Origin: Rhynochetos jubatus
Taxonomy: Eukaryota > Chordata > Aves > Eurypygiformes > Rhynochetidae
NCBI GenBank assembly: GCA_027574665.1
Contig: CM050668.1
Span: 7,340,001-7,404,000 of the forward strand
DNA: 64,000 nt
Reading direction: 5' to 3'
Positions 1-64,000 of this stretch are shown here, in pieces. The notes beneath the pieces were generated by a model. That model had not been told where the DNA came from and made no database searches. It was given only the letters and a program-made list of their open reading frames with translations. Both the position numbers and the translations under genes were made by a program. Positions within the stretch are counted from its first letter, which is position 1. Every line of letters starts with the position of its first letter.

Positions 1-2574
1 TCGCGGTGACTGCTGTTTGCTTGTAAGCCAGCAGGGAATATCGTCAGGAGCCAGGGAATTGAATTCTCTTGCTACTGAGGAAGTAATGCAGCCTTGCTTT
101 CCTGGAAGAACCCGTGTTGTTTGACTTTCTTAGTTTTGTTTCTTTCTTTGCCCCTTCCTCCCCCTCCTTGAAGCAAGGCAGACCCAAGGTCCTCGCGCTG
201 CAGGACTGGGCAACTTGATCTGGGTCTGGCCACGTTCTTTGTCACAGTCCAGGAAGTTACAGCGTGAAGCAGGGAGACAGGACGGACAGGCCTCTGGGTA
301 GGGGCATCTTTGTCCCGAGTTACCTGCAGTAGTAGGAAACGACAAGAGCAGCTGCCCTTGAGCACAGTCCCTCTGCTGTGGCCGGGTAAGGGGCTGCAGC
401 ATGGCAGTAGTTCTGGCTGTCTGTGTTTCCAGGCTGAGGTGGTGCCTTGGTCAGGCTGGCAGTTGTGCTGGTCCCTGCTGAGTGTTACCAGGGCCTCTGT
501 GGACTTTGTCTCAGGTGAAAGGGCTCGTTGCTGGGGAAAGTAGTAGCAGGAGACAGTAACTGTACTTTTCTGCTGTTTGCTGGAGACGGTAACTGTACGT
601 TTCTGCTGTTTGCTTTGTGCCTGCGAATGATCTACTGAGTTCCAGCCCCGCACATGTGTGCAGAATAGCCGAGGAAGAGCACGGGGCGTGCTGGAGTGCC
701 GCACAACTGCTCGTGAGGGAAGCATGGCCTTTTCTTGGTAGCATGGACCAGGGCTGTTGAGCCTGAGCTGAGCTTTCTCCTCTTATGGGGAGGGTCACAC
801 TGCCACGCAACCTCCTCGGTCCTTAACGAGCTTCTTGTGCAAAAGGCGAACACTCTGCAGGCAGCCACTGAGCTACTGCACCCGTCACCTGGTAATGTGA
901 ATGTACCTGTGGTTCTGGGAAAGGGTGGTACAGCTTTACTACATGTATTGTGATGTCACAGTTTAGTTCGTGATGAGGTCGTTCCCTTGCATGTACTACC
1001 CAGTGCACTGGAGGAAACGTCCCATTTGAGGTACTAGTACTGAACATCATCAGCTGCCTAGAAAGCCTTGGCTTTAACATAGGCATTCCACAAGGGCTGA
1101 AATGGGACAACAGGAATTCCCCTTGCCATGCAGGGTGTGAGATGCAGGTACTCACAGTTCAGATCCACCCCGGTAAGTTCCTGCAGATTCTCTTGGGAGT
1201 TAACTGTGACAGGAGTTGGGGGGCTGCAGCCAAGGCTGTTCAGAGCCAGCAGCAGTTGGTTGCTGCACTGAGACTCTTGTGTTCATTTTGAAAACATTGC
1301 AGCTGGACTGCAGGGGTATTTGAGAGCAAGTACGCTTTTGCAGTAGTAGAGTTATCTGAAGAGCACAGTGCTTTAAAAGCAACACACCCCACTTATGTAC
1401 GGCTCTCACCTTCCGTGTGCACTTAACCAATGTGGAAAAGTTATTTAAGGCGTTTTGCTTTAATTTCTGCTCAGTGAAAATGTAAACAGTAAGAGCTTTG
1501 CAGGAAGGCTGTTTTGGGGATATGGGTAACTGTTTAGCTTTGTGTTCCAGCTGTAGGCTTTTCGTAAGGAGGGGGAAAAGCACGTCAGCCCTGCCTCGTA
1601 CAGCTCGGGGGAAGCTTGTAAATGGGATGTGAGTCTTGGTGTCCAGTCAGGGAAGGGTTCGCACACTTCCCAGAGCAAAAAAAGACAGCTTTCAACTCTT
1701 GAAAGTCAGAGGAGTAGTAGCCATCAACATTGTAAATCCAGATGTAGAACAAACTTTGGAGTCTAAGTTCCTAAGTAGCAGTGTCTCTCTCCAGGCTGCT
1801 TTTGTTAGATACTGCTATTCTAAGGGTGTTACAGCATATTTGCTCCCTTCACTACTGTGAAATCTTGGAGAGGATCTTCTGGTTACTGGGGGACACTTGC
1901 TTCATCCATCAGGCTATAGGTACTCTTTGTTTAGGAGTTCCTAGGCTGTGGGTGTGAAAGTAAATGGAGAAGCTGCGTGTTGCTGGGTATCTCCTACCTC
2001 ACCGCAGACCTCAGTCGTGTGCCTGCACGCCAGCCTCTTGCAGTGCTGTGAGGACTTTGCAAAGCACTTTTACCTTCAGCGGGCTGTTTGTGGTTTAGGG
2101 GAGTGTGTGTTGTCAACCTGTGAAACGCTGGGGGCTGTGATGCTGTGTTTCACGCAGAGAGCTGGGGAGACCTGCAGCGTATCAAGCCCCTGTCTCCACA
2201 CGCTTGTGGTAGAGGTGTGTTGTGAACCCAGCCTGGTGCTGGAGAACCACGCGGTGCTGGATGCCGTCCTTGTGGGTAGTACTGAGCTGCAAAGGCGAGA
2301 CAGGAGGGAGAAGGTGAAACTGTTTTGAGTGTGAAAGTGAGGTGAAGTTGAGGAGTAGCATGGTGGGAAATGTCCAGATATCCCTAGTCAGAGGTCAGGC
2401 TAAGTCACAGGTAAGGTTCTGTGCTCTGCTGGTAGAGCAGACACGTGAATTTAGAGAGTCTGGAAAACAAGCCTGTTCATGCTAATAGAAATAACTTGAG
2501 GCATTTATGAAACTTTAGCCTTCCTGTTACCTTCCCTGTGACTATTTTAATGTTGTTTCTGTTTCTCCTTCTAG
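1..2574 (+). other. AKAP1 intron 1, 3' part (copy 1)
   Basis: Non-coding stretch ending in a good polypyrimidine tract and acceptor (gtttctccttctag). It holds the 33-bp minisatellite and nothing else I can name. A + strand open frame at 1948-2328 (126 codons) is preserved in all units but starts without an ATG and resembles no family I know. The full intron in later copies runs from the exon 1 donor, for example 15280-18537, 31257-34547 and 46238-49526. Confidence 0.8.
549..614 (+). repeat. 33-bp minisatellite, two copies (unit 1)
   Basis: Two adjacent 33-base copies starting ggagacagtaactgtac and ending ctgctgtttgct, differing at a couple of bases. It lies in intron 1. Confidence 0.9.
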
Positions 2575-2601
2575 ATAATAACTTAGCTGAGGCTCTGTAA
2601 A

Positions 2602-4323
2602 ATGGCGTTACACTTGCCCAGAGTCATCCGTTATGCCATACCTGGAGTGCTGGCATTACTTGGCTGGTGGGTCTATTGCCATAGAAAAAAGCGTGCAAGC
2701 TGTCACGACGAACAAGAAACAGCCATTGAAGAAGTGCCAGAGGATGGTGCATCACCCGAACCGGAAGCATGCGTTTCTCGAAGACAGCTTTTCTCGTCGG
2801 GAGAGGAATGCTCAGAGAACGAAACCTCGACCCCCCTGCTGTCAGCAGGGTTGCTGCCGCCCCATCTTTGTCAAGCTCAGGAGAGGCTAGATCTCTCGGA
2901 GGACCTTGCAGACCTATCAGTGATGACAGTTCCATACAGCGCCCTTGAGGACGACAGTGGAAAACTAGACTCAATAGGATCTGCAGAGGAAAGCAGTGTC
3001 CCTGCTAGTGTCTCTCTCCCTCTGATCTCAAAGACCGCAGAGTGTCCCAGCAGCACTGCCGTGAGCCTTAGGCAGGGTTCAAGCTGTGCTGCAAACCAAG
3101 AGCAGTGGCCGTCAGCGACACTGCCGCACGAGTCTTTGGGAATCACGGAGATCAGCCGTGCAGAGCAGTCAGACGGTTCTTCATTTAAGCTCCCCAAAGA
3201 AAGCCAGATGGCAGAAGTTGTGCTGCCGAATACCAGCTCTGTGACAGCTCTTTGCTTGGGATTGGAGAAGGAAGCCGATGCCCCACAAGCCTTTCTCAGT
3301 AACGAAGCAGAAGTTGTATCAAGTCACAAGGATTCTGCAGTGAACGCGCTACCGGATAGTTTGGAGCCTGGCTGCTTGGAGCAGTCCAGGGAAGAAGTGA
3401 CGTTTGACTCAACTGCCAGTACTGTACCTGTGTGTCAGGAGGACTCACAGCCAAAAGGAGATGAATCGGAAGGAGAGCAGATTGCAGGAGTGAGTTTGGA
3501 CAAGGAAGAAATGGAGAAAATCGAGCAGGTGGCAAAGCAGGCAGTTTCCGAGGTCATTTTGGCAGCAACTGAGGAAGTGCTGTCTGGTCCTGCGAGTGAT
3601 GTTTCCACTCAGAGCTGCCAGGCCGCTGCCAGCCGAGCTGAGAGACCTCGGGAGGTGGCAGGTGTTGTTTCCTCTGGTCAGATGCTTGCGGAGAAAGCTA
3701 CGGCAGCCGATGAGAACACTTCTGTGAGGAGTGGGGCTGTGGTACTGGCATCCCCACGGACAGAGGAACGGGATCAGAGTGTGACAGATCCCAGCCGTTT
3801 AATACATGACCGTTTATCCAGCCCTGTTCAGGGAAATCCGAAAGACTGTCAGAAAAGGAAGAGTGTGTGCAGCAAGTCCCAAGGAGTTGATCGTACCCCC
3901 GTGGAAAACCATGGAGGGTCACTGGAAAAGTTGCCTTGGGTTATGGAGGACTCTGGGTGCAGCACATCCGCATCGGAAGGTGGAGCAAGTGTGGAGGACC
4001 CATTGCAGAACACGATGCTGTCTGACGCATCGGGCCAGCATTCGGACTCACTGAGCCTGTCTACAAGCCGAGACACGTCTGCTGAAGATTGCTCAGTACC
4101 AAGTGGAAAACCTACCCTAAAGCTGCCGGACAACAGCCAAGTGCCGTACAGTAATGGGATACTGAGAGAGGATGGTCCGCACTTGCCTCATGAGTGTAGC
4201 AGGGCAGAAGGGGTGGATGGAGATAACTTAAAAGGTAAGGGATTTGAAAATCTTCCTGTAAAAATGTGGGGAACAAGCTTTTTATGTGCTGTAACCCTCC
4301 TGCTTCAGAACATGTTCAGATGA
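2602..4323 (+). CDS. AKAP1: AKAP1 copy 1 short form: exon 2 read-through ORF (573 aa)
   Basis: If the exon 2 donor at 4235 is not used, the frame runs 29 codons into intron 2 and stops at 4321-4323. The product keeps the mitochondrial anchor and the PKA-binding helix but loses KH and Tudor domains. The added tail (545-573) contains a hydrophobic run, [15 protein letters not shown], near the C terminus. Mammalian AKAP1 has a short form of similar size (S-AKAP84, about 593 residues) known from male germ cells. That the bird-like copy makes an equivalent by intron retention is inference. I see no canonical AATAAA close downstream of the stop. Confidence 0.6.
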   Translation: MALHLPRVIRYAIPGVLALLGWWVYCHRKKRASCHDEQETAIEEVPEDGASPEPEACVSRRQLFSSGEECSENETSTPLLSAGLLPPHLCQAQERLDLSEDLADLSVMTVPYSALEDDSGKLDSIGSAEESSVPASVSLPLISKTAECPSSTAVSLRQGSSCAANQEQWPSATLPHESLGITEISRAEQSDGSSFKLPKESQMAEVVLPNTSSVTALCLGLEKEADAPQAFLSNEAEVVSSHKDSAVNALPDSLEPGCLEQSREEVTFDSTASTVPVCQEDSQPKGDESEGEQIAGVSLDKEEMEKIEQVAKQAVSEVILAATEEVLSGPASDVSTQSCQAAASRAERPREVAGVVSSGQMLAEKATAADENTSVRSGAVVLASPRTEERDQSVTDPSRLIHDRLSSPVQGNPKDCQKRKSVCSKSQGVDRTPVENHGGSLEKLPWVMEDSGCSTSASEGGASVEDPLQNTMLSDASGQHSDSLSLSTSRDTSAEDCSVPSGKPTLKLPDNSQVPYSNGILREDGPHLPHECSRAEGVDGDNLKGKGFENLPVKMWGTSFLCAVTLLLQNMFR

Positions 4324-7300
4324 ATCCTCTTTGTGTTTCACTTCCCCAGCGGGTGAATATTTAGCCCGCATGCGCAGGTGGGCATGGATTTTCTCTTAGA
4401 ATTCCCATCCCTGTAGGGTCCAGGGTTAGCCGGGTGATCTTCAGAGTATACTGCAAAGGCGTGAGCAGGCTGGTCCCCTTTCAACACAAAGCTTGTTGTC
4501 CAAAGCCAAGCATCTGCTTGAGTAGCCCAGTGAAACGGATGTAGGCCAGACCTTGCTGGTTTGAGACCTGCTAATACGAAGGGCTGCTGCTTTGGCCCAG
4601 GCAGCCTCTGGGAAGCACTGGGTTCTTACCTGTGTTTATGGGCCGCTGCTGAACGGAAGCGGTAAGGCAGGTTTCTGAGGTGCTGCTGGATGAAGCAGGG
4701 AAGTGCTCTGATGAATTGTGATAAAATCAGTTGGTTGCAGACAAATTACCCTGAAGCCTTTTTGCTTGGATGGGTAGGTGCGTGCCGAGAAATCCCAGCA
4801 GGGAGCAATATTCGTGGAGCTCCCGCATCTGCCTGTGTTGCTTTTGCATTCTGGCTGCTGTGTGCCTGGTAGAATGCAAAGCTGTCTGAGCAATGTTAAC
4901 CTGTGTGACCTTGGGGATGGATGTTAAAATCCCTTTCTAGGACCCCACGGTGTCAACAGCCCTTAATGACAAAATGTCTTTTGTAATTGCTGCGGGGTAG
5001 TTGGAACGCTGCTTGTTGCAAGACCTGGGGATTGAGTTTGCCACAGAACGTTTTTCACTAGTGAGAGTAACCATAGGAAGAAAGTGATTTTGCCTTGTGA
5101 GTGCTGGTGTGACGAGGAGGTACAGGAGTGTTGTGGAGCCTGGTGATGGCAAGGGCTGAAAGCTCTGCACTGAGGAGAGGGGATGCTATAGCAGGTAAAG
5201 GTGAGAATCTCGGATAAGAGGTCCTACAGCTGACCTTCACACCCAGGCTGTGAGACTGAAATCCTTCTTGCCCAGGAAGTCCCTGGCAAATGCCTGCACC
5301 ATTTGCCTTTGAGTGTGTGAGCATCTGTGCTGTGTCACAAGTTAAGATGTGGCAAGTGTGAAGCTGTTGGGTTCGTTTTTCTCTTTGTTTCGGCACTGGG
5401 GGGTCTGAATAGTTGCAAGCAAGGATCTTCATAATCTGCTTGTTAATCTGGAGGAAGGATCAACCTTGTGTTACACCGACTGTACCTGGGATGTGACCAG
5501 GAAGAAGCCGTTTGAGTTTGTCTCCTTCCCAGCCAGAAATGTTCCTGGTATCCCCTGATGGTTTGGGAACAAAACATAGCTGAGCTCTGGCACCTTGTTT
5601 CTTCAAGCGTATGACAAATTTGGGCAAGAGGCAATCCCCCAGGACAGCTAGTAGTGCCCTTGGGTCAGTGTGCAAGACGTGTTGGGGCAGGAATGTGCAA
5701 AGAGCGGATGAATAGGTGGCATGTCCCTCCACGCTGAACTCCCCCTGAAGAGCGCTGTGTGAGCCATGAGGAAAACACAAAATACCTTGCTGCAGCAGAG
5801 GCTCGGTGTTGGTGTTAGCACAGTTCTCATGCAGCTGGTAGCTGTGACTTGGTGTCTTGTCTCTGCTGCTGTGTAAGGTGTCACCGTGTGTGAAGGACTC
5901 CTGCTGGACTCAGGCCTCCTTCTGTTGCGTGCCCAGCGGTGGGCAGGTTTTTCTGCAGGAATAAAAGGAGCCTTTCAGTAGGCTGTGTGTGATGGGACTC
6001 TACCCTTTCTGAAATACTGGAGAAACTGATACAGGGACATCCCAACTGAATGCGTAGGAAGAGCTGCATGTTTCTCTAGGAAGCGATGTATTTTCGTGGT
6101 CTTGTGACTGGCAGCTGGCCTGGGTGAGTTGTGAGTGGTCTGAATGCTGACACATGGACATGTCTTGTAGGTTTGGATGTAACTCGCATGGATTTCATGG
6201 ACAGTGGCTGTGCCATGAGGAAGACAGTGGCTCGCCGGAACTCTAAGCTAGAAGACAAATCCGGCAAGTTCGACCTCGTTATCTGGGAAATAGAGGTCCC
6301 AAAGGTAAGCTGTCTCTGTCTTCATAGCGAGCTTTCTCTTGAGCTGAGAGGTTGTGTTTTTTAGGACTGCGCTCATACCTTCTTCCCCCCTTTGAAGATG
6401 CAAAATCACCTGTGGCTGTCCTGCACGACATTGCTCTTGCAGTTCTGCTTCTGAGCAGACCCGAATACTGACGGCCAGAAACGTGAGACAGCAGCTCCCA
6501 GCAGGATGAGCGTGCTGCCTTGAGTGCTTGGGGGCTGTGATCCCAGTGAAGAAATGTAACGTGTGTTTTCATGGATCAGTAAAACACAGGCTAAGAGAAG
6601 TTCTACAGCAAAAAAAAAACCCCTTTCAGTGGTTAGCGAAGACAGGCTGTCAGTTCTCTTAAAGTAGCTAACTTGGCATTGTCTAGGATTATCCGTACTG
6701 ACTTGGGCCCAACACTTCTGCTCCGGTCTCTGGTCTCTGACAGCAAGTGGTGGCAGGTGCCTACGGAAGAGTGGAAGCGAGAGGGCTTGCACAGACATCG
6801 CAGCTTCATCGCCCTGCGCAGGACATCCCAGCTGTCCAGGGACTCTAGTCTAATGGGCATGATAGCCTGGCTTACTCTCCAATGAATTTGTCTACTCCCT
6901 TTCTAATTAGCTTATTTTAAAATTGCTGGGACTTAGTATTTCAAATCGGAATGAAAATTGCATGTAGCCTGCTGGGGAAAACAAAACAGGTGGAAGACTG
7001 GGAGAGGACTCGACCCGACTGTAGGAAGACAGCAGCGTTTATCAGGCCTGTTTTTGTCCCATCGTGCCTTTGTGTCATTTGACAAGGGATGAAGATGGAT
7101 CTGTCAAAATGAGCTCTACTTTCTGATCTGTATCTCCCGTGACTTAGCGCAGACCAGCTGAACGCTGCACTAGTTCATCATTGCCTTGTATTTATCCTGC
7201 CTGGCCCTACGCTACAGGAAATGGGAACGTAGGTGAAATAAGCCACAGAGAACACGTTTGATCTACATTTCTCTTCCTGACTGTTGCTTTCTTATCCCTT

Positions 7301-10300
7301 TCCTAAAGGACTTAGTTGGCCAATTGATTGGCAAACAAGGAAGATTCATGAACTTCTTGAGGCAATCCTCTGGTGCCAAGATTTATGTCTCGACACTACC
7401 TTATTTCCATGACTCCCAAGTCTGTCACATCGAAGGTAAGTGCAATGTCTCTTTATTCGTGGTCTAATATGTAGCCTGGGGACCTCAGTTAGGTAGGCAA
7501 GGAATTCTGACAGATTTAGTGGCGTCGTGAGTCCAGTGCTTTACAAAACATTTCCACTCAGTGCTGTTACAGTAGAGGTATATGCCAAGTCGCCTGTGCC
7601 TTGGCATGTGCGCCTTCTATTCTAGAGGTAGGGATGCATTTTAACGTCTTCAAGCTGCTGTAGTTTAACAAGCACCTCTTGCAGGATCGCTGCAGGCTTG
7701 AAGGAGGAGCTATGGGATGTGTATTAGCAAATATGGTTTTGAGTGTGAAGAATAGGAGATTAATTGTGGCTGAAAAATACCTGCCAGTGACTTGGGTTCA
7801 TACTGGAGGCTGAAGCTGTTGAAACTGGGGCCTGGCGGTCAGAGTTGCTCACGTTGGCCTGATATGGCCAATCTGTTAATACTTCAGTTATTGGCGTAGC
7901 ACAGAAGGCTTCTGGTAGCTATGTTGCTTCACATGGTGGGGCTGTCCTCAGCATACCTATGCTACAGACTTTCTGTGGGATTTTTGTCTTCCAGGCTCTG
8001 CGCATCAAGTAGAAACAGTACTGAGCCTGATTGGGAAGAAATTTAAGGAGCTGTGTCTCACCAACATCTACGGCCTACCTCCACCAACACTACTGACGCT
8101 CCATTCCATCCTTATGACCGCCTGGGTAAGTCCCAGCTTGCCGGCTGTGCTGATGTCAGGGTGGAAGGCCACGGTTGGTCACCGCCATCGTAGTATGCTG
8201 TGTCCATGTGGCTGGTTCACCGATGCCCTCAGAAAGAGTTTGGCTTTGTGTGGCTATCTGTTGTCCAGCTTGTGTAATTCTTACAGATGAGATTTATCTG
8301 GTGGTTTCTGACACCTCGATAACCCTTGTCCCTTTGCTGCCACATGGGTGTCTATCCCCTACCTCCACTGAGACGGTAGACCGACGGACCTTGCCAGCAC
8401 GCTGACCCTCAAACATTGAGGTGCTGCCCCCAGGCTTCTCTCTAGCAAGCCTGGTTTTACCCCTTTCTCCCTTCAAATCTAGTTTAAAACCATTTCAGTG
8501 AGCCCTGCTCACTCCTGCACAAAGATCCTTTTCTCCCTTTGAGACAGGGGACACCAGGCTTGGAGGCAGGTGTTGATCCGCTGTCTGCTCTTGTTCCTTT
8601 CCTCGTCCTTCCCTGCCAGTGGAAGGATAGAGGAGAACACTGCCCGTGCTCCTGATCCTTTAGCAGTCATCCCAAAGCCCTGAAGTCTCTCGATTGCCCT
8701 TGGACTGTGGCAGAATGTTGCACCAAACTGGGCACGCATCTGGCCCGGTAGGCTTTAACCTACAGGCTCAATGTTTGTCTAAGGAAGTAACACTTCGGTC
8801 TCCAGCCGAGTTGGTTGTCTGCTCCCTCCGCTTAAAGGCGTGTTGTGGTTTAATCTCGGCTAGCAACAGGCCGTGAAGCCACCCTCACCCCCCTCTCCAC
8901 TCCAACGGAGGGACAGAATTGGAGGAAAAAGGCAAAGAGGCTCATAAAATTGAGATAAGAACGATTTGCTAATTGAATATAAGTGAATTACATATATATG
9001 AGAATATATAAAAATACTACTACTAATAAGTAATTAAAATAATAGAAAATAAACGTGTGATACAATTGCTCACCACCCGCCGGGTAGTGACATAGCTCAC
9101 ACACAGCCAGGTCCTGGTAAGTGAAGAGTCAGAGCCAGCGAGCCCGAGAGCAATCACAGCAGAGTCCAAGCGAGCCCCACGAGCGACAGCAGGATGAGAA
9201 AGGGCTGACTGACCCACCAGCTCATGAACATGCAAGCAAAGGAATTAGCAAAGCAGCTAACGAAGGAGTTCAGGAGCTGACAGAAGAGTTGGCAAAGGAG
9301 CAAAAAGAGTTCCCGAATGAGTTACGGCCCCTGAGCCCACTCCCCGCTTCTGTACCGAGCCTGATGTGCTATGGAATGAAATCCTCCTCTGGTCAGTGTG
9401 GGTCAGCTGTCTGAACTGTGTGTGTCCCCACACTGCCTCTAGTGAGAAAGTTGGAAATGCAGCTGGGAAAGGCCTTGAATTTGGTGCAAGCACTCCCCAG
9501 CACCAGCTGAAAAGACACCTTATCAGTAGTTTTCTCAGGGTAAATCCAGAAACCCAGCTTCATAGCAGCCACTGTGAAGAGTTAACTCTTTGCTGACTAA
9601 AACCAGCACAGGGCTCTTTGCTGTGAGGCGGAAATGCCACTGATCCGTTGCCATTACTGGCATTGCCCCTAAATCCTGAAGCTGGTCTTCTCAAAATGTT
9701 TCAATTCCTTATGGTATTTAATTGCACTAAAAGGAGGTTTTCATGTCAGCGTTTCCCAGAAGAGTTTTCATGCTGCTTTTGCTATATGACACCTAGAAAC
9801 ACTGGACCTTTAGAATCTATAAAGTAACACTGCATGGAACTGTCTCCTTGGATGTGAAGACAGGCTTTGTTCTGGAGAACTGAATTTATGCTGGGAAATC
9901 CAAACCATGTTGGTTGTATTCCAAGCACAGTAGTGCTCGGAAGCTGCCCAACCCAATGGCTCCAGCGGCCAGGGTGCAGATGACTTGGAAAATGAGGCCT
10001 CTGTGACAAATCTTGGCCAATCCCTGCAAAGATTACCTTGATGTTTAAAAACCCGTGGGCAGGGAATCCTTGCGAGGTGCGCTGTGTGGAGAGCGCAGCA
10101 TGACTTGAGCTGCATCGTTTCTGACTCTGCTCGCTGATCTCTTGGGTAAATAAGGAGTTGCTGGTGGAACACGGGGTTGCTGGGAACGAAGCTTGTGTTG
10201 CGATGAACTCCGAGAGTTTCCTTTCTCCATGTGGCAGCTGTTGCTCCCGGATGGAGTCACCGTAGAGGTGGTTGTGGCGCACCAAGTCGACGCGGGACAC

Positions 10301-45881: not shown

Positions 45882-46570
45882 GCCGGAGCGGGAAAGCCCC
45901 TACGACAGCAGCTCCCGGGCTGGCTGAGGCCCGGCCTGACGCCGCCGAGGCGCTGGGCCGCTCCCTGCCGAGGATGAGGGGCCGCGCAGCGGCCCGCCCC
46001 GCCGCCGCCACCAGGGCTGGCCGGGCCTCAGCGGCAGCGCGGAGCGGGGACTCCTTTGGGATGACTCCCCGCGTACCGAGGAAGGGAGGGCGGGAGGAGG
46101 CGGCCGCGGGTGAGGCGCAGCAGGGCGCAGGGTGTCTGTGAGGGGGCGCGGCGGCGGGGGGGCGGGGAAGACGGGCGGCGGGGGGGACCGGGACGCGCTC
46201 CCGCTCCGGGCACCGGCGGTGGCGGACCGGACCGTCCGTAAGTAAGTACTGCCGCGGGCTATCGGCCCACCCTGTCGGGTCTCGCACTGCCCGGGCGTGC
46301 CGCTGCGCCCAAGGTCAGCGCCACCGCGCCCGGCCCCCGGCCCGGCTGTCAGGCCCGGCCCGCGCTGCCGGTGGGGAGCACGGTGGAGGGAGCGGGGCTG
46401 CCCGCGGGCACGGCGGTGGCTCCGCCGACGTCGCCGCTGGGGCTCGATTGCAGCAGGCCGGGCTGTGCCGGTGCCCGCCGGGGAGCGGAGCTGCAGCGCC
46501 CGTGTGGCCCCGGGGCTGGGGAGGCCCTACAGCGGGTACCGGGCGGGGTGTCTTAGGGGAGGCTGCAGGT
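45882..46570 (+). promoter_or_regulatory. AKAP1: CpG island, promoter and non-coding exon 1 of AKAP1 copy 4
   Basis: Counterpart of the other islands. Exon 1 would end at 46237 and join exon 2 at 49527. A local change (tgtgagggggc at about 46137-46147) puts a TGA 26 codons after the upstream ATG at 46061, so the upstream frame is short in this copy. GC boxes are preserved. Confidence 0.75.
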
Positions 46571-47502
46571 AAAGGCTGCACAGGTCCCTCAGCCTGGCTG
46601 AGGGCTCTGAAGGCTCTCTGAGGCCTCAGCTAAAGATGGGGCTTTTGTGTGTCCATGTGCACGTTACTGCTTGTTTCCCAGCCAGGCGGGGGCAAAGTCA
46701 ATTAGCACAGTCAGGAGAGAAGCAGCTGTGCCAGCCAGAGGAATGCTGGGAGCTGGAATCAAACGTGATTCATTCCCGCTGCCAACCGTGCTGCAGCTAC
46801 TTAGCAATGAAAGCGAGAGGTGACCCAGGTGTTGCAGGCTGGGCAGTAACGAGGAAGGTGCCTGGTGTTGTCCCTTGTGCTCTGGTATGGCAAGGCTTGC
46901 TGTGTTACGGAAACAGCCGCTCAAAACTGTGCTTAGCAAACTCTGTACGTCGCGGTGACTGCTGTTTGCTTGTAAGCCAGCAGGGAATATCGTCAGGAGC
47001 CAGGGAATTGAATTCTCTTGCTACTGAGGAAGTAATGCAGCCTTGCTTTCCTGGAAGAACCCGTGTTGTTTGACTTTCTTAGTTTTGTTTCTTTCTTTGC
47101 CCCTTCCTCCCCCTCCTTGAAGCAAGGCAGACCCAAGGTCCTCGCGCTGCAGGACTGGGCAACTTGATCTGTGTCTGGCCACGTTCTTTGTCACAGTCCA
47201 GGAAGTTACAGCGTGAAGCAGGGAGACAGGACGGACAGGCCTCTGGGTAGGGGCATCTTTGTCCCGAGTTACCTGCAGTAGTAGGAAACGACAAGAGCAG
47301 CTGCCCTTGAGCACAGTCCATCTGCTGTGGCTGGGTAAGGGGCTGCAGCATGGCAGTAGTTCTGGCTGTCTGTGTTTCCAGGCTGAGGTGGTGCCTTGGT
47401 CAGGCTGGCAGTTGTGCTGGTCCCTGCTGAGTGTTACCAGGGCCTCTGTGGACTTTGTGTCAGGTGAAAGGAAAGGGCTCGTTGCTGGGGAAAGTAGTAG
47501 CA

Positions 47503-54200: not shown

Positions 54201-57200
54201 GAACACGTTTGATCTACATTTCTCTTCCTGACTGTTGCTTTCTTATCCCTTTCCTAAAGGACTTAGTTGGCCAATTGATTGGCAAACAAGGAAGATTCAT
54301 GAACTTCTTGAGGCAATCCTCTGGTGCCAAGATTTATGTCTCGACACTACCTTATTTCCATGACTCCCAAGTCTGTCACATCGAAGGTAAGTGACAATGT
54401 CTCTTATGTAGCCTGGGGACCTCAGTTAGGTAGGCAAGGAATTCTGACAGATTTAGTGGCGTCGTGAGTCCAGTGCTTTACAAAACATTTCCACTCAGTG
54501 CTGTTACAGTAGAGGTATATGCCAAGTCGCCTGTGCCTTGGCATGTGCGCCTTCTATTCTAGAGGTAGGGATGCATTTTAACGTCTTCAAGCTGCTGTAG
54601 TTTAACAAGCACCTCTTGCAGGATCGCTGCAGGCTTGAAGGAGGAGCTATGGGATGTGTATTAGCAAATATGGTTTTGAGTGTGAAGAATAGGAGATTAA
54701 TTGTGGCTGGAAAATACCTGCCAGTGACTTGGGTTCATACTGGAGGCTGAAGCTGTTGAAACTGGGGCCTGGCGGTCAGAGTTGCTCACGTTGGCCTGAT
54801 ATGGCCAATCTATTAATACTTCAGTTATTGGCGTAGCACAGAAGGCTTCTGGTAGCTATGTTGCTTCACATGGTGGGGCTGTCCTCAGCATACCTATGCT
54901 ACAGACTTTCTGTGGGATTTTTGTCTTCCAGGCTCTGCGCATCAAGTAGAAACAGTACTGAGCCTGATTGGGAAGAAATTTAAGGAGCTGTGTCTCACCA
55001 ACATCTACGGCCTACCTCCACCAACACTACTGACGCTCCATTCCATCCTTATGACCGCCTGGGTAAGTCCCAGCTTGCCGGCTGTGCTGATGTCAGGGCG
55101 GAAGGCCACGGTTGGTCACTGCCATCGTAGTATGCTGTGTCCACGTGGCTGGTTCACCGATGCCCTCAGAAAGAGTTTGGTTTTGTGTGGCTATCTGTTG
55201 TCCAGCTTGTGTAATTCTTACAGATGAGATTTATCTGGTGGTTTCTGACACCTCGATAACCCTTGTCCCTTTGCTGCCACATGGGTGTCTATCCCCTACC
55301 TCCACTGAGACGGTAGACCGACGGACCTTGCCAGCACGCTGACCCTCAAACATTGAGGTGCTGCCCCCAGGCTTCTCTCTAGCAAGCCTGGTTTTACCCC
55401 TTTCTCCCTTCAAATCTAGTTTAAAACCATTTCAGTGAGCCCTGCTCACTCCTGCACAAAGATCCTTTTCTCCCTTTGAGACAGGTGACACCAGGCTTGG
55501 AGGCAGGTGTTGATCCGCTGTCTGCTCTTGTTCCTTTCCTCGTCCTTCCCTGCCAGTGGAAGGATAGAGGAGAACACTGCCCGTACTCCTGATCCTTTAG
55601 CAGTCATCCCAAAGCCCTGAAGTCTCTCGATTGCCCTTGGACTGTGGCAGAATGTTGCACCAAACTGGGCACGCATCTGGCCCGGTAGGCTTTAACCTAC
55701 AGGCTCAATGTTTGCCTAAGGAAGTAACACTTCAGTCTCCAGCCGAGTTGGTTGTCTGCTCCCTCCGCTTAAAGGCGTGTTGTGGTTTAATCTCGGCTAG
55801 CAACAGGCCGTGAAGCCACCCTCACCCCCCTCTCCACTCCAACGGAGGGACAGAATTGGAGGAAAAAGGCAAAGAGGCTCATAAAATTGAGATAAGAACG
55901 ATTTGCTAATTGAATATAAGTGAATTACATATATATGAGAATATATAAAAATACTACTACTAATAAGTAATTAAAATAATAGAAAATAAACGTGTGATAC
56001 AATTGCTCACCACCCGCCGGGTAGTGACATAGCTCACACACAGCCAGGTCCTGGTAAGTGAAGAGTCAGAGCCAGCGAGCCCGAGAGCCAGAGCCTGAGA
56101 GCAATCACAGCAGAGTCCAAGCGAGCCCCACGAGCGACAGCAGGATGAGAAAGGGCTGGCTGACCCACCAGCTCATGAACATGCAAGCAAAGGAATTAGC
56201 AAAGCAGCTAACGAAGGAGTTCAGGAGCTGACAGAAGAGTTGGCAAAGGAGCAAAAAGAGTTCCCGGATGAGTTACGGCCCCTGAGCCCACTCCCCGCTT
56301 CTGTACCGAGCCTGATGTGCTATGGAATGAAATCCTCCTCTGGTCAGTGTGGGTCAGCTGTCTGAACTGTGTGTGTCCCCACACTGCCTCTAGTGAGAAA
56401 GTTGGAAATGCAGCTGGGAAAGGCCTTGAATTTGGTGCAAGCACTCCCCAGCACCAGCTGAAAAGACACCTTATCAGTAGTTTTCTCAGGGTAAATCCAG
56501 AAACCCAGCTTCATAGCAGCCACTGTGAAGAGTTAACTCTTTGCTGACTAAAACCAGCACAGGGCTCTTTGCTGTGAGGTGGAAATGCCACTGATCCGTT
56601 GCCATTACTGGCATTGTCCCTAAATCCTGAAGCTGGTCTTCTCAAAATGTTTCAATTCCTTATGGTATTTAATTGCACTAAAAGGAGGTTTTCATGTCAG
56701 CGTTTCCCAGAAGAGTTTTCATGCTGCTTTTGCTATATGACACCTAGAAACACTGGACCTTTAGAATCTATAAAGTAACACTGCATGGAACTGTCTCCTT
56801 GGATGTGAAGACAGGCTTTGTTCTGGAGAACTGAATTTATGCTGGGAAATCCAAACCATGTTGGTTGTATTCCAAGCACAGTAGTGCTCGGAAGCTGCCC
56901 AACCCAATGGCTCCAGCAGCCAGGGTGCAAATGACTTGGAAAATGAGGCCTCTGTGACAAATCTTGGCCAATCCCTGCAAAGATTACCTTGATGTTTAAA
57001 AACCCGTGGGCAGGGAATCCTTGCGAGGTGCGCTGTGTGGAGAGCGCAGCATGACTTGAGCTGCATCGTTTCTGACTCTGCTCGCTGATCTCTTGGGTAA
57101 ATAAGGAGTTGCTGGTGGAACACGGGGTTGCTGGGAACGAAGCTTGTGTTGCGATGAACTCCGAGAGTTTCCTTTCTCCATGTGGCAGCTGTTGCTCCCG

Positions 57201-60200
57201 GATGGAGTCACCGTAGAGGTGGTTGTGGCGCACCAAGTCGACGCGGGACACATGTTTCTGCATCAGCACACCCACCCCACTTTCCATGTCCTGCGTAGCC
57301 TGGACCAGCAGATGTATGCCTGCTATTCTCATCCCGCGGTTCCGACCCTGCCGACTCCAGTAGAAGGCAAGTAACCTGGTTGCTCACAAATTGTTCCGCT
57401 GAGGAACTTCTAGGGTCACGCGAAAGCACGATGCCCCTGAGTTAGGCTTGGGAAGTTTCCCCGTAGATGGGAATGTGATAGTTCGCTTGTCATTTCATCT
57501 CTCTTTAAGCTGACGCCAGAGTACAGACGTTGCTCTCCTCTTCCTTACCTCACACGTCCCTGGAGTACCTCCCCAGCCACCTAGTTCCATGTTGAAGTTC
57601 AGGATAAAATAGTCTGTCTCAGGTTATTTCTCATCAACTTGGCATCTGGTGTGCTTTTGCTGACAGTGTGGAGCTACTCCCAAATCTTCATAGTGTCACT
57701 CTCAGCACACGGTGTAAAGCGGCGGGTACACCCCGTGGAAAGGGGTTATTAGTGCTGAGCTTCCTTTTTGGAAGCAGATACCTCGCTGTTAATGACCCGA
57801 GGCTGGAAGGGAGCTGGATACTTGGGTAGAGCAGGACGGTAGTGACTGACAGACTGGAGAGTAAACTCCCCTCTCTGTGTCCCAGCTGCAGGCTTGGTGT
57901 GGTGGGGGTGTGGGTGGTGTTGAAAGGAGATGGGAGCAGCATAGGAAATGCTGTTGATTCTCCGTAGATGGCTGGGCAGCGGTAGTGATGTCTGAAGTTC
58001 TGATTCCTGGAAACCCACTCACGCCGAGCCTTTCTTCTCTGCACTCCTGTGTTTTGCAGTCGGTATTATCTGCGCAGCTCCAGGCCTGGATGGGGCATGG
58101 TTACGGGCTCAAGTCATTAGCTACTTTGAAGAGACGGATGAAGTGGAGCTCAGATACGTGGACTACGGAGGATACGACAAAGTGAAGATTGACACGCTCA
58201 GACAAATCAGGTCTTTAGCTGCTCTTCCGTGGCCTGAGGCCGTGTCTGGTTTGAATCTTCATCGGAGGCATCCGTATCGTTTGAATTGCTCATAGGTTTT
58301 TCCACAGCTGAAGCGGGAAGTGGCAGAAAGGTTTGTCTGGGCAGCGGGCGTGGGTTCCTTGGGAGCGGAGCACAGTAAGCTCTTGCGAGGCTTTTTGAAG
58401 GGGAGTGGAGAGGAAATTGCAGCTTCTGCCACTTCAGCGTGGAAGCTGAGCAAAAGGATGCCGACAGGAGGCCCCGAAGTGTAGTTCATTGATGAGCTAG
58501 GAATAAGATTCGCATTCCCTACGCCCCAGCCCCGTTGGCTGGGAGAGCTGTATTGGATGAGGGGTTTCTTCCACGAGCCCATTAAATACGCGATTGTGCC
58601 CCAGAGGTGGGGGGAAAAAAGCAGTACAGCCACCCTTATGGGGGTGGGTTTTACGGGGAGCCCGGTCCAACCTGACACGCGAATCAGACAATTCACTGCT
58701 GTTGCTTACACTGTCATCAGTTTTAAACTGAATTCCTGCTAGAGCAACTGATGAATCAACGTCACCTTCAAGAATACAGGAGTAACTGAAAGCCAGGTTC
58801 TTAATCTGATTGATTCTCTTTTCTTTAAGGTCTGATTTTTTATCACTACCTTTCCAAGGAGCGGAAGTTTTACTAGACAACGTGGTGCCACTTCCAGGTA
58901 ATGGGGCTTTCGAGGTGTGCTGTTGGCACTCCTCTGGCAGGTTGCAGAGCATGCCAGCTGTGTATAAGCAATGATTCTGTCTAAACCTTCCCCCTCCTTT
59001 TGCAAGTGCAGCCTCTGGGGTGACTAGAGCAAGAATTAGAAAGAACTGTATGTGATTCTTTGACATGTGCTGGCGTGGCATAACCGCTCAGACTGCAGGG
59101 GAAAGAGCGGAAATGTCTAGACTTTCTCGCACGGAGGAGAGAATGAATTATTCTCCTAGGCACAAGTTGGCAGGACTGGCAGGTTATAGATGAAGTAGCT
59201 GTCCCTACTCTGCCACCTTCCGTGCTCTTTCTGCCACCCAGAGTAAATGCAAACCTAGTTTTTGGTCTCCTACACAATTACCTGGCGCTTTCCAAGTGAT
59301 GTGTGTAGTGCTGTGTTCAAAACGCTGCCCTCCAAGCACTGGAAGAATGTCGGTCACTGCCTAGAAGTGCTTTCTGGTTTGCTTTTTTCTTTCTAGTGGC
59401 GCTGGAGATGTGTGCTGTACTGGTGTCAAAAGCTGCCCTTCTGGGGGCAGCAGGGAGGGGTGGCTGTAGGAGCCAGGGGTCAGGCCAGGTTTCCCCACAG
59501 GGCTTTGGGGCTGGCAGGACTCGGGGCACAGGCCCTGCCAAGGCTGTAGATGTAGGGCGAGGTTTAAGCTGCTTCTAAGCAGAAGTTGGTGTTTTGCACG
59601 TTCCCCGAGATGATCGACCTCCTTCGGTATTTCTGGGGTTGTAAGGAGTCCCCTTGCTGCTGCAGGTGGCCCTCGGGGTGGGGAGCACAAAGGAGAAACT
59701 TTATTTTGCAGCAATTTGGTAGGAAATAAGCAACTGTCCTCCAAAATGAAGACACTTCTGTCCGGTCTAGGGGGCAGGTTGTACCCGTACTGCCTGGGAC
59801 GCAGGGGGTTCCGGCTGCGTCGCAGGCGTGGAGTTAGCAGCAGGACCCGTGTAAGCTGTGCAGGCTGAGACATGAGCTGCCAGTGCTGGCAAAGGGCATG
59901 TGCCACCGCTCAGGTGCCAGCCAGCCTGCGGTACAAATGCTTTTGAGTCCCTGTTTACGCTATTGCACTCCGCGCGGGGTCGGTAAAGTCCTGAGGTCCC
60001 CGAGCTTAGTTTATTAAGGATCAAAATACTAATGGCGGCTCAACGGAGCTGCACAAGTACACTTTTCTGTCTTTCAAGCCTCCTAATTCATCAGCCACGT
60101 ATGTTCACGGTAACTTAGCTAGTGGCTTTGGAAAGCACTTCCCCCTTTCCCTTCAGCAGCCCAGTGGGCACAATACCTGTGTGACCTCCAGCTTAACAGA

Positions 60201-61508
60201 CGGGTTTCGGCAGCTGCCTACAGCAACAGTAGGTGAGGATTCTCTGGCCTAAGTTCCGTAGGAGGTCAGACAAGATGAGCTTGGTAGTCCCTGCTGGCTT
60301 TTAGAGCCTGAGCATCTCTCATTTGGTTTCTCCTGCTCTTTCCTTTCCACAGGCGAGGATCACTTTTCCTCTGAAGCCGACGCCGCTGTTGCCGAGATGA
60401 GCAGAGGCGCAGTCCTAGCGGCACAGGTACGTGAGGGCTGTCTGGAACAGCCGATTCGACTGCTGCTGTTATCCTCTCTGCCCCTAGCACGCTCTGTATG
60501 TTGCAGTCAAAACCAAAGCCGGAGCCTGTAGGCCTGGCTGCCGGACAGGGTTCTTGCGGAGAAATGTTGGTGCTGAGACCTTCCTTGTGCAGCGTCAGCA
60601 CCGCTCGGGGCTGTGTGGCTGGGAAGGGCCGAGCAGTCCCTCTTGTTGCTGATGCGGGCAGGGAGGAAGGGCACCGAACGGCTTTACAGAGCACAAAGTG
60701 GCCTCTTGTCCAGTGGACCACGTATTCACCTGGGTGTGCGCTGCTTTGCCAGTCTCAGCTGTCTTTGCAACACCGGTGCCAGGGGTCTGGCCTCTGGCTG
60801 GCCAGAGGGAGAAGCGAGGCTTCTGGCAGTGTCCCAGAGGCTTCTGCGTGCAGTGCCTGACCTCGGGGAAGAGGCGCTGACCTCTCGTGCCGTGCTTCTA
60901 ATGCTGGCTGTAGCTCTCCATGTCAGTCAGCTGGGACAAGCGGGAAACTGATGGTGGTTGAGCCGCTCAATCTCAGTTTGCTTTGGTTTCCTGCAGCGCT
61001 CAAACGCATCACGAATCTTGCAAGGGTATGGATTTGAGTGGCTAGAGCAAACCTGCCAGCAGGGTGTCCCGCTGCCTGGTGGCAGGAGCCGCGTTTCCTC
61101 TTGCCTACACCGAAGTATTGACTCCGATAGGCAGTGCGTGATGCTCGCCTTGCATCCTCCGTGGCTCAGACCCGAATGGCTGCATGTTGATGTTTTTCTG
61201 TGTTTGCAGGTCACAAATTACGACGGTGCGACAGGTCTGCCGCTGATACAGCTGTGGAACTTGATGGGAGACGAGGTGCGCATGTTGCCATGTGTATTTT
61301 TTCAACACTTCACAAAGTGAATTGTTCGTGCTAATCACTGTTAGCGTTCGTGGTTACGCAGACTTTCTGTTGTTGGTCAGGAACTTGCTGATGTTACTTG
61401 CCGGAGGTTTGTTCACCTTTCTACTGTTTTCTTTCCACCTCTCTTTAGGTGGTGTCTATAAACCGAACTCTGGTGGAACGAGGATTTGCTCAGTGGCTCG
61501 ACTACTAG
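49554..61508 (+). CDS. AKAP1: AKAP1 copy 4, A-kinase anchoring protein 1 (873 aa)
   Basis: Coding exons: 49554-51186, 53123-53256, 54260-54386, 54932-55062, 57189-57366, 58060-58210, 58830-58897, 60353-60426, 61210-61275, 61449-61508. The frame is intact and exon lengths match the other copies. It is the most changed copy at its N-terminal half: C26S beside the membrane anchor, R60Q, M304I at the start of the kinase-binding helix, R431C and V514E, plus N165K shared with copy 3. At D541 and M554 it carries the same residues as copy 1. KH and Tudor domains match copy 1. A small deletion sits just inside intron 4 but leaves the donor (gtaagtga) usable. Promoter and exon 1 are at about 45882-46570. 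Confidence 0.95.
55778..56561 (+). mobile_element. Degenerate solo LTR, intron 5 of copy 4
   Basis: Same element and position, 784 bases, with the 14-bp extra segment. Confidence 0.6.
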
Positions 61509-61628: not shown

Positions 61629-61874
61629 ATCTGTGTTGCTGAACTGTTACCATTTCACTAGAAACACATAGCTCGTCTCAGTGAAAGGCAGGGTGTTAAA
61701 AGCCATAATGACAGATACCGTAGCTTTAAAGCAAAAAAACCTCCTCCCTGGCCTCTACTCAAATGGAATGCAAAAACCCTTAAACCCTGGGGCTTGCTGG
61801 AAGGTAGCAAGTGTCCCTGAAAGGGGAACTGTGGTTGCGTTTTGGTTCAAGATGTAGAATGCCCCATGACCACC

Positions 61875-62560
61875 GCCGGAGCGGGAAAGCCCCTACGACA
61901 GCAGCTCCCGGGCTGGCTGAGGCCCGGCCTGACGCCGCCGAGGCGCTGGGCCGCTCCCTGCCGAGGATGAGGGGCCGCGCAGCGGCCCGCCCCGCCGCCG
62001 CCACCAGGGCTGGCCGGGCCTCAGCGGCAGCGCGGAGCGGGGACTCCTTTGGGATGACTCCCCGCGTACCGAGGAAGGGAGGGCGGGAGGAGGCGGCCGC
62101 GGGTGAGGCGCAGCAGGGCGCAGGGTGTCTGTGGGGGTGCGCGGCGGCGGGGGGGCGGGGAAGACGGGCGGCGGGGGGGACCGGGACGCGCTCCCGCTCC
62201 GGGCACCGGCGGTGGCGGACCGGACCGTCCGTAAGTAAGTACTGCCGCGTGCTATCGGCCCACCCTGTCGGGTCTCGCACTGCCCGGGCGTGCCGCTGCG
62301 CCCAAGGTCAGCGCCACCGCGCCCGGCCCCCGGCCCGGCTGTCAGGCCCGGCCCGCGCTGCCGGTGGGGAGCACGGTGGAGGGAGCGGGGCTGCCCGCGG
62401 GCACGGCGGTGGCTCCGCCGACGTCGCCGCTGGGGCTCGATTGCAGCAGGCCGGGCTGTGCCGGTGCCCGCCGGGGAGCGGAGCTGCAGCGCCCGTGTGG
62501 CCCCGGGGCTGGGGAGGCCCTACAGCGGGTACCGGGCGGGGTGTCTTAGGGGAGGCTGCA
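61875..62560 (+). promoter_or_regulatory. AKAP1: CpG island, promoter and non-coding exon 1 of AKAP1 copy 5
   Basis: Counterpart of the other islands. Exon 1 would end at 62230, before gtaagtaagt. The coding exons of copy 5 lie beyond the window, so only the promoter, exon 1 and the first 1.77 kb of intron 1 are visible. The upstream ATG is at 62054, and its frame stays open to the donor as in copy 2. Confidence 0.75.
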
Positions 62561-62942
62561 GGTAAAGGCTGCACGGGTCCCTCAGCCTGGCTGAGGGCTC
62601 TGAAGGCTCTCTGAGGCCTCAGCTAAAGATGGGGCTTTTGTGTGTCCATGTGCACGTTACTGCTTGTTTCCCAGCCAGGCGGGGGCAAAGTCAATTAGCA
62701 CAGTCAGGAGAGAAGCAGCTGTGCTGACCAGAGGAATGCTGGGAGCTGGAATCAAACGTGATTCATTCCCGCTGCCAACCGTGCTGCAGCTACTTAGCAA
62801 TGAAAGCGAGAGGTGACCCAGGTGTTGCAGGCTGGGCAGTAACGAGGAAGGTGCCTGGTGTTGTCCCTTGTGCTCTGGTATGGCAAGGCTTGCTGTGTTA
62901 CGGAAACAGCCGCTCAAAACTGTGCTTAGCAAACTCTGTACG

Positions 62943-64000
62943 TCGCGGTGACTGCTGTTTGCTTGTAAGCCAGCAGGGAATATCGTCAGGAGCCAGGGAA
63001 TTGAATTCTCTTGCTACTGAGGAAGTAATGCAGCCTTGCTTTCCTGGAAGAACCCGTGTTGTTTGACTTTCTTAGTTTTGTTTCTTTCTTTGCCCCTTCC
63101 TCCCCCTCCTTGAAGCAAGGCAGACCCAAGGTCCTCGCGCTGCAGGACTGGGCAACTTGATCTGTGTCTGGCCACGTTCTTTGTCACAGTCCAGGAAGTT
63201 ACAGCGTGAAGCAAGGAGACAGGACGGACAGGCCTCTGGGTAGGGGCATCTTTGTCCCGAGTTAACTGCAGTAGTAGGAAACGACAAGAGCAGCTGCCCT
63301 TGAGCACAGTCCATCTGCTGTGGCTGGGTAAGGGGCTGCAGCATGGCAGTAGTTCTGGCTGTCTGTGTTTCCAGGCTGAGGTGGTGCCTTGGTCAGGCTG
63401 GCAGTTGTGCTGGTCCCTGCTGAGTGTTACCAGGGCCTCTGTGGACTTTGTGTCAGGTGAAAGGAAAGGGCTCGTTGCTGGGGAAAGTAGTAGCAGGAGA
63501 CAGTAACTGTACTTTTCTGCTGTTTGCTGGAGACGGTAACTGTACGTTTCTGCTGTTTGCTTTGTGCCTGCGAATGATCTACTGAGTTCCAGCCCCGCAC
63601 ATGTGTGCAGAATAGCCGAGGAAGAGCACGGGGCGTGCTGGAGTGCCGCACAACTGCTCGTGAGGGAAGCATGGCCTTTTCTTGGTAGCATGGACCAGGG
63701 CTGTTGAGCCTGAGCTGAGCTTTCTCCTCTTATGGGGAGGGTCACACTGCCACGCAACCTCCTCGGTCCTTAACGAGCTTCTTGTGCAAAAGGCGAACAC
63801 TCTGCAGGCAGCCACTGAGCTACTGCACCCGTCACCTGGTAATGTGAATGTACCTGTGGTTCTGGGAAAGGGTGGTACAGCTTTACTACATGTATTGTGA
63901 TGTCACAGTTTAGTTCGTGATGAGGTCGTTCCCTTGCATGTACTACCCAGTGCACTGGAGGAAACATCCCATTTGAGGTACTAGTACTGAACATCATCAG
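62943..64000 (+). repeat. Tandem amplicon unit 5, truncated by the window end
   Basis: The first 1,058 bases of a fifth unit, all within intron 1 of AKAP1 copy 5. It aligns throughout with unit 4 (same cgtcgcgg start, same two-copy minisatellite). No coding exon is reached; by comparison with unit 4, exon 2 would begin about 1.5 kb beyond the window. Its presence shows the array continues to the right. Confidence 0.95.
63496..63561 (+). repeat. 33-bp minisatellite, two copies (unit 5)
   Basis: Two adjacent copies at 63496-63528 and 63529-63561. Confidence 0.9.

What the first reader, a model, noticed from the sequence alone, without database searches (positions are those of the whole stretch)
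1..64000. Head-to-tail array of at least five 16-kb units, each with a complete AKAP1 gene
AKAP1 is known as a single-copy gene in vertebrates such as human and mouse. Here the window is nothing but repeats of it, and both edges fall inside the array. All four full copies are intact across ten coding exons, with splice sites and promoter. This looks like functional gene amplification, as on sex-linked or germline-restricted bird chromosomes, or a dosage expansion. AKAP1 combines a mitochondrial anchor with KH and Tudor domains, the layout of the germline piRNA factor TDRKH, so a germline role is a reasonable idea. Chromosomal location and role are inference.
Basis: partly seen in the sequence, partly recalled or inferred. 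Interest (0 to 1): 0.88.

Follow-up and report, generated by a model that had tools for sequence, protein, structure and literature searches.

The report
Tandem AKAP1 gene array in kagu
In the kagu, a nearly flightless bird, the mitochondrial anchor gene AKAP1 has been copied along its chromosome and multiplied into about 25 copies while the original copy decayed, an unusual replacement of a normally single-copy gene by an array whose purpose is not yet known.

Summary
The window is C23:7,340,001-7,404,000 of a 1.33-Gb genome that matches the kagu, Rhynochetos jubatus. It carries four complete head-to-tail AKAP1 genes, each encoding an intact 873-aa protein over ten coding exons, plus 1,058 bp of a fifth unit. 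The genome holds 25 copies: 24 in a series about 379 kb long and one beside it. Exon 2, the KH exon and the Tudor-core exon are open in 25 of 25; whole coding sequences are intact in 13 of the 13 copies read in full.

A sex-linked or germline-restricted place is not supported: MSI2 and MRPS23 lie on the same contig. A broken AKAP1 (stops; exons 3-5 missing) sits beside MSI2, the ancestral place, 6.1 Mb away. So AKAP1 was copied, amplified, and the original lost. Coding variation is mildly depleted against introns (p 0.024) and Tudor exons are constrained (dN/dS 0.25), but the N-terminus is nearly neutral (0.88).

Best reading: a functional, homogenised AKAP1 array, probably a dosage expansion. 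Expression, tissue and benefit are unknown; neutral amplification remains a live rival.

The parts
2602..14558 (+). AKAP1 copy 1, coding exons 2-11: 2602-4234, 6171-6304, 7309-7435, 7995-8125, 10238-10415 (GC donor), 11109-11259, 11879-11946, 13402-13475, 14260-14325, 14499-14558; 873 aa
   Evidence: tblastn with ibis AKAP1, splice borders, translation
18565..30533 (+). AKAP1 copy 2, ten coding exons, intact 873 aa
34575..45515 (+). AKAP1 copy 3, ten coding exons, intact 873 aa; carries a 1,028-bp deletion in intron 2 at 36700|36701
49554..61508 (+). AKAP1 copy 4, ten coding exons, intact 873 aa
14801..15650 (+). CpG island, presumed promoter of copy 2; the non-coding exon 1 probably ends at a donor near 15281 (by eye)
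   Evidence: G+C up to 0.80 and CpG observed/expected up to 0.96 in 200-bp steps; alignment
30851..31600 (+). CpG island, presumed promoter of copy 3
45801..46600 (+). CpG island, presumed promoter of copy 4
61751..62600 (+). CpG island, presumed promoter of the next copy, whose coding exons lie beyond the window
30898..30899 (.). Duplication junction between copies 2 and 3 (unit coordinate 14907|14908), about 250 bp after the poly(A) signal at 30648 and at the edge of the CpG island; equivalent junctions at 14923|14924, 45880|45881, 61873|61874
   Evidence: Array edges in the genome start and stop at this unit coordinate; positions in the other units read from the alignment

Best explanation
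AKAP1 was copied about 6.1 Mb along its own chromosome in the lineage of the kagu. The new copy expanded by unequal exchange into about 25 genes, each unit being one whole gene from its CpG-island promoter to just past its poly(A) signal. The original copy beside MSI2 lost its KH exons and its reading frame. The array therefore supplies all intact AKAP1 that could be found in this species. It is homogenised by exchange and conversion and kept open by selection, chiefly on the mitochondrial-anchor plus KH/Tudor RNA-binding protein, so that the likely effect is a high or tissue-specific dose of a mitochondrial RNA-binding scaffold. Shown: copy number in the assembly, intact genes, the second place, decay of the original, depletion of coding variation. 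Inferred: unequal exchange, expression, dose, tissue and benefit.
For: 25 of 25 exon-2 copies open, 25 of 25 KH exons open, 25 of 25 Tudor-core exons open and identical in protein; 13 of 13 copies read in full (of 25) have an intact 873-aa coding sequence and splice sites. Across those 13, coding sites vary less than intron sites (25/2622 against 144/9348, Fisher p 0.024) and 0 of 12 indels are coding (3.4 expected, P(0) 0.035). A broken copy at C23:1,117,394-1,123,625 has stops and lacks exons 3-5; it lies next to MSI2 exons (1,149,837-1,365,116) and MRPS23 (1,456,154). Matches on C23 only (51 of 279 candidates scored; 34 of 34; 29 of 29). Array against broken copy: Tudor exons dN/dS 0.25. 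Unit of one whole gene. Three pairs of copies 31 kb, 31 kb and 140 kb apart differ by 0.07-0.10%, while next neighbours differ by 0.23-0.51%, which fits multi-unit exchange.
Against: No expression data. Among the 13 copies there are 21 amino-acid and 4 silent variable sites (17.6 amino-acid sites expected if neutral, P 0.097), so no sign of purifying selection on amino acids between copies. With the four window copies alone the coding depletion is not significant (p 0.071) and the ratio is 14 to 2 (P 0.105). Exon 2 against the broken copy has dN/dS 0.88. The public kagu models that hold exon 2 of the array stop before KH and Tudor. The p values are modest and the copies are not independent. 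Copy number rests on one assembly, and 12 of 25 copies were seen only exon by exon.
Confidence: 0.65

Rival explanations
1. Neutral amplicon: after relocation the locus expanded by chance and exchange, one or a few copies do the work of AKAP1, and the others are young passengers that have not yet had time to decay.
For: The 13 copies differ by 0.62% at most, so only about 0.9 stops would be expected among 25 coding changes. Amino-acid to silent sites 21 to 4. The N-terminus drifts and the PKA-docking helix is altered.
Against: Coding variation depleted against introns (p 0.024), no coding indel (P 0.035), Tudor-core exon invariant in protein in 25 of 25, only 3 of 21 amino-acid variants in the C-terminal third (P 0.053). 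Units keep promoter and whole gene.
Confidence: 0.23
2. Short-isoform array: the copies mainly make a protein with mitochondrial anchor and PKA helix but without KH and Tudor, like mammalian S-AKAP84 of male germ cells, and the KH/Tudor exons are carried along.
For: Public kagu models of 625-691 aa end in an extra exon about 155 bp after exon 3, present in all four window copies. S-AKAP84 was found in sperm development (passages of PMC7072574; that it lacks KH/Tudor is recalled). Exons 4 and 8 have AAG acceptors and exon 7 a weak-looking donor (by eye, not scored).
Against: Two kagu models do contain KH and Tudor (P0121, P0123). KH exon and Tudor core open in 25 of 25; Tudor dN/dS 0.25. No AATAAA or ATTAAA between the extra exon and exon 4 in any of the four copies.
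Confidence: 0.1
3. Sex-linked or germline-restricted amplicon.
For: Ampliconic genes are common on such chromosomes (recalled). Gannet and some takahe AKAP1-like copies lie on contigs of 1.4-3.9 Mb of unknown nature.
Against: Same contig as the broken ancestral AKAP1, MSI2 and MRPS23. Of the 120 proteins listed, 33 from birds other than kagu lie on contigs of 9.7-16.9 Mb and two on 57 and 127 Mb (my count), in line with an ordinary 14.7-Mb AKAP1 chromosome. No match on another contig.
Confidence: 0.03
4. Assembly artefact: haplotypes or reads of one gene falsely strung into an array.
For: Near-identical long repeats are hard to assemble and only one assembly was seen.
Against: Private variants in each window copy; 13 copies with a structured distance matrix and a 1,028-bp deletion allele in 5 of 13; array edges with insertions, duplicated flanks and inverted fragments. 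Two haplotypes of one gene cannot give this. The exact number could still be off.
Confidence: 0.03

Closest known systems
Single-copy vertebrate AKAP1 (D-AKAP1, AKAP121, AKAP149, S-AKAP84)
   Same: Anchor-bearing N-terminus on one large coding exon followed by KH and Tudor exons; 873 aa against 884 aa in ibis; Pfam KH_1 and TUDOR
   Different: About 25 copies instead of one; 6.1 Mb from the ancestral place; original copy broken; PKA-docking helix altered (I312K, I314A, I315V, K317E against most aligned proteins)
AKAP1-like duplicates of other birds (gannet, takahe, mousebird, Amazon parrot, buzzard)
   Same: Extra AKAP1 copies besides or instead of the usual one in single bird lineages
   Different: One to five annotated members per cluster, several of them truncated; gannet, takahe and parrot copies group with their own lineage with starred support, so these are separate events; buzzard placement is weak and mousebird had no ordinary AKAP1 in the tree
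Ampliconic gene arrays (for example HINTW on bird W chromosomes; recalled)
   Same: Tandem, homogenised, whole-gene units
   Different: On the chromosome of the ancestral AKAP1 neighbourhood, not on a sex chromosome as far as can be told, and the founding single copy is lost
TDRKH (TDRD2), mitochondrial piRNA factor
   Same: Mitochondrial anchor, KH and Tudor in layout (recalled); best solved structures for the C-terminus are TDRKH Tudor domains
   Different: One KH domain found instead of two; long AKAP1 N-terminus; collinear with AKAP1 from end to end

Membership tests
AKAP1 | Large N-terminal coding exon, collinear with bird AKAP1 from residue 1 (anchor segment included) | tested here: met
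   About 70% identity over residues 1-552 of ibis AKAP1 in copy 1; open in 25 of 25 copies. Targeting to mitochondria itself not tested
AKAP1 | One KH and one Tudor domain at the C-terminus | tested here: met
   Copy 1: KH_1 E 1.9e-8, TUDOR E 5.8e-19, both above the curated cut-off
AKAP1 | PKA-docking amphipathic helix, motif LxxxAxxIVxxAIxxA (introduction of PMC3682517, passage) | tested here: inconclusive
   Usual bird sequence fits (I,A,I,I,V,I,A); the array has I,A,A,V,V,I,A, and Lys stands at 312 where 107 of 117 aligned proteins have Ile. Binding not testable here
TDRKH | Two KH domains before the Tudor domain (recalled) | tested here: not met
   One KH match in the C-terminus and no family in exon 2 of copy 1
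Functional tandem gene array | Head-to-tail copies of whole genes with promoter | tested here: met
   24 exon-2 copies on one strand spaced 14,963-16,040 bp, the last gap 21,341 bp; array edges at C23:7,323,884 and 7,703,376; CpG island at each window junction. 7,514,001-7,703,000 was not read apart from small loci
Functional tandem gene array | Expression from the copies | not testable with these tools
   No RNA data held
Germline-restricted or sex-linked amplicon | Lies on such a chromosome | tested here: not met
   Shares its contig with MSI2, MRPS23 and the ancestral AKAP1 place; sex- or tissue-specific depth not tested

The most novel reading that the evidence does not exclude
The kagu lineage turned AKAP1 from a single-copy PKA anchor into a multicopy mitochondrial KH/Tudor factor: the relocated array replaced the original, its PKA docking is weakened, and a high germline dose (control of mitochondria, mtDNA or small-RNA pathways) drove the expansion, with AKAP1 duplicated again and again in other Neoaves for similar reasons.
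Probability: 0.15. Interest if true: 0.82.

Novelty: new member of a known kind. Interest (0 to 1): 0.6.

Why it matters
AKAP1 is usually treated as a single-copy anchor gene. A species in which about 25 open copies stand at a new place and the original is broken is a natural experiment on AKAP1 dosage and on which parts of the protein matter: Tudor and KH are kept, the N-terminus drifts and the PKA helix changes. Separate AKAP1 duplicates in several other bird lineages suggest that the gene is prone to, or rewarded for, duplication in Neoaves. Arrays that replace their own founder outside sex chromosomes are seldom described (recalled, not searched), and this one can be tested with existing kagu reads.

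Tried and rejected
Sex or germline-restricted location: rejected from linkage to MSI2 and MRPS23. COIL, a human neighbour of AKAP1 (recalled), is on C22; this suggested for a time that the array had changed chromosome, but MSI2 and MRPS23 show that C23 holds the ancestral place. Truncated gene: the first public models lacked KH/Tudor, but the DNA has all coding exons. Promoter silencing read from CpG decay: island CpG sites vary as often as other CpG sites (4.7% against 4.8%; non-CpG 1.7% against 0.6%), counts too small to decide. RNA genes: none at Rfam thresholds in 1-33000, the only part searched. One ancient paralogue behind all bird 'AKAP1-like' genes: not supported, since gannet, takahe and parrot copies group with their own lineage; buzzard (90/87, with an accipiter and a storm petrel) and mousebird (long branches, no ordinary mousebird gene in the tree) remain unsure. 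Order of kagu broken copy, sunbittern and array: 97/93 for array plus sunbittern, but the alternative is not rejected (AU p 0.087). A first script to extract coding sequences gave false stops because exon edges were trimmed or shifted; corrected. A PDB search with the docking-helix peptide gave only a designed protein at E 0.026; a paper search for the human helix sequence found 0 papers. No report of this array turned up in the listings (open-licence PubMed Central papers only), nor the words kagu, Rhynochetos or AKAP1 in the main text of PMC13320880. Of the six genome search families or queries that I wanted for neighbours, Noggin and serine carboxypeptidase did not complete.
Full report
Where it is. 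The whole genome behind the window is held: the window is G000:C23:7,340,001-7,404,000, in an assembly of 1,331,379,947 bases and 148 contigs. Contig C23 has 14,705,844 bases, the same length as the contig that carries the kagu (Rhynochetos jubatus) proteins P0001-P0003, which match the window's exon 2 at 98-99%. The source is therefore the kagu, order Eurypygiformes.

The observation. The window is a tandem array: 24-mers recur mostly at distances of 14,979-16,010 bases, and aligned stretches over 4 kb are 99.2-99.6% identical. Four complete sets of AKAP1 coding exons and 1,058 bp of a fifth unit are present. Each of the four copies gives a 2,622-nt reading frame with one terminal stop, eight GT-AG introns and one GC-AG intron. 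KH and Tudor are recognised by Pfam in copy 1 above the curated cut-offs. A CpG island lies between successive copies, and a poly(A) signal ATTAAA lies 115 bp after each stop. The repeat junction is about 250 bp after that signal, at the edge of the CpG island. The unit is thus one whole gene and little else.

The array in the genome. A search with ibis AKAP1 found 25 exon-2 copies, all on the + strand of C23 between 7,274,778 and 7,693,712 and all without stops, and pieces of one broken copy at 1,117,509-1,119,053; no other contig matched (51 of 279 candidates were scored and the tool calls its counts lower bounds). The KH exon was found open in 25 places, all in the array, 13 identical to the query and 12 with one or two differences by their 98% and 95% identity. 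The Tudor-core exon was found in 25 array places, open and identical in protein, and once in the broken copy with a stop. I fetched 7,250,001-7,340,000, 7,404,001-7,514,000 and 7,703,001-7,713,000, later 7,686,001-7,692,000. In the stretch that includes the window 13 copies are complete, and 13 of 13 have intact coding sequence and splice sites; the other 12 of 25 were seen only exon by exon. The main series starts at 7,323,884 and ends at 7,703,376, 379,493 bases, with 24 exon-2 copies spaced 14,963-16,040 bases and a last gap of 21,341. One further copy (7,266,524-7,287,110), with a 4.4-kb insertion, lies to the left, parted from the series by 13.1-kb spacer repeats that hold inverted pieces of the AKAP1 start region; a similar inverted piece follows the right end. 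The last copy has at least 5 kb of unrelated DNA upstream, without the insertion of the first copy in the 6 kb read.

The original gene is broken. The separate copy at C23:1,117,394-1,123,625 is 83-89% identical in DNA to the array, has stops in exon 2 and in the Tudor exons, and lacks exons 3, 4 and 5, hence the KH domain. Its exons 9-11 would lie beyond the 10 kb that I read. The array's start region was not found in the 3.4 kb read upstream of it. It probably corresponds to the public kagu protein P0057, labelled low quality, which has Tudor only and lies on a contig of the same length. MSI2 exons lie at 1,149,837-1,365,116, with a weaker set on C21 that is probably MSI1, and MRPS23 at 1,456,154, matched stretch with one in-frame TGA. 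The human order AKAP1-MSI2-MRPS23 is recalled, and the order here fits it. This is therefore the ancestral place, and the array is a relocated copy 6.1 Mb away. COIL, in human on the other side of AKAP1 (recalled), lies on C22, so that side of the neighbourhood is not kept on C23.

Age and kinship. In the KH-Tudor tree of 57 rows the array and the broken copy form one kagu clade, 100/100. In the exon-2 tree of 31 rows the array groups with sunbittern (Eurypyga helias) before the broken copy, 97/93, but a kagu-only grouping is not rejected (AU p 0.087). So relocation may predate the kagu-sunbittern split. The copies now seen are young: the 13 differ by 0.07-0.62%. Noncoding divergence between array and broken copy is 10.4%.

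Selection. Across 13 copies, coding sites vary less than intron sites (25/2622 against 144/9348, Fisher p 0.024) and 0 of 12 indels fall in coding sequence (3.4 expected, P 0.035). With the four window copies alone the contrast is 16/2622 against 122/12310, p 0.071. Against selection, 21 amino-acid and 4 silent variable sites among the 13 give no sign of purifying selection on amino acids between copies (17.6 amino-acid sites expected, P 0.097). Only 3 of the 21 fall in the KH-Tudor third (P 0.053). Against the broken copy, exons 6-8 have dN/dS 0.25 over 131 codons while exon 2 has 0.88 over 500 codons; since one of the two is broken, both ratios are pulled towards 1. Of positions conserved in at least 90% of the other aligned hits, 40 of 42 are kept in KH, 107 of 110 in the Tudor region and 159 of 181 in exon 2. 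AKAP1's first coding exon is poorly conserved among mammals as well (section 1.3 of PMC7072574).

The PKA helix. The motif for PKA RII docking is LxxxAxxIVxxAIxxA (passage of PMC3682517). The usual bird sequence fits it at residues 307-322. In the array I314 is Ala, I315 is Val, I312 is Lys and K317 is Glu; sunbittern shares the first three, and the broken copy has Ala at 314 and Thr at 312. Docking may be weakened; this is an inference.

How it works. The most likely account is a functional dosage array: each copy carries promoter and gene, exchange between copies homogenises them (copies 31 kb and 140 kb apart differ by 0.07-0.10%, next neighbours by 0.23-0.51%, and a 1,028-bp deletion allele is scattered through 5 of 13), and selection keeps the frames. 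What is dosed is a mitochondrial outer-membrane scaffold that binds RNA. AKAP1 was first found in sperm development, and the fly homologue is needed for mtDNA replication and local translation (passages of PMC7072574), so a germline or mitochondrial benefit is reasonable but not shown. Public gene models disagree on whether copies make the KH/Tudor part; RNA would decide.

Verdict. As a kind it is a tandem gene array; the gene, the size, the intactness and the loss of the founder are what make it notable.

Noticed in passing
C35:3178639-3344964 and C27:3099968-3100177, 3713585-3713794 of the same genome: Six open HSF-type DNA-binding frames (293 aa each) in one orientation on C35, 27-36 kb apart, and two in opposite orientation on C27: other amplified genes in the kagu.
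   Followed up: no
C23:7287111-7320095 (L012-L016) and L029:4525-5654: 13.1-kb spacer repeats (about 2.3 copies left of the main series, part of one at the right end) hold HSF-like pieces (HSF_DNA-bind E 0.08-0.18, below the cut-off, frame apparently broken) and inverted AKAP1 start fragments; DNA about 80% similar lies upstream of the broken AKAP1. Likeness to HSF5 is recalled.
   Followed up: partly
Proteins P0122, P0148, P0144, P0150, P0161, P0133, P0134, P0125, P0137: Extra AKAP1-like proteins in gannet (P0122: 5 members, 1.48-Mb contig), takahe, mousebird, Amazon parrot and buzzard. Seven of the nine were put in a tree: gannet, takahe and parrot ones group with their own lineage with starred support, the buzzard one weakly, the two mousebird ones with each other. 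Repeated AKAP1 duplication in Neoaves.
   Followed up: partly
KH-Tudor tree: A long stem (0.18 changes per column, support 100/100) separates Neoaves KH-Tudor from that of the two landfowl/waterfowl and three ratite rows: a burst of change, or an old paralogue swap, at the base of Neoaves.
   Followed up: no
window 15000-15990: The last kilobase of the unit, with the CpG island, is its most variable part (27 variable of 992 sites); 11 of the 20 variable island sites are private to the island before copy 2 (my count).
   Followed up: partly
window 16172-16577 and equivalent places: A 33-bp unit stands twice at 549-614, 32522-32587, 47503-47568 and 63496-63561 but lacks one copy in unit 2.
   Followed up: no
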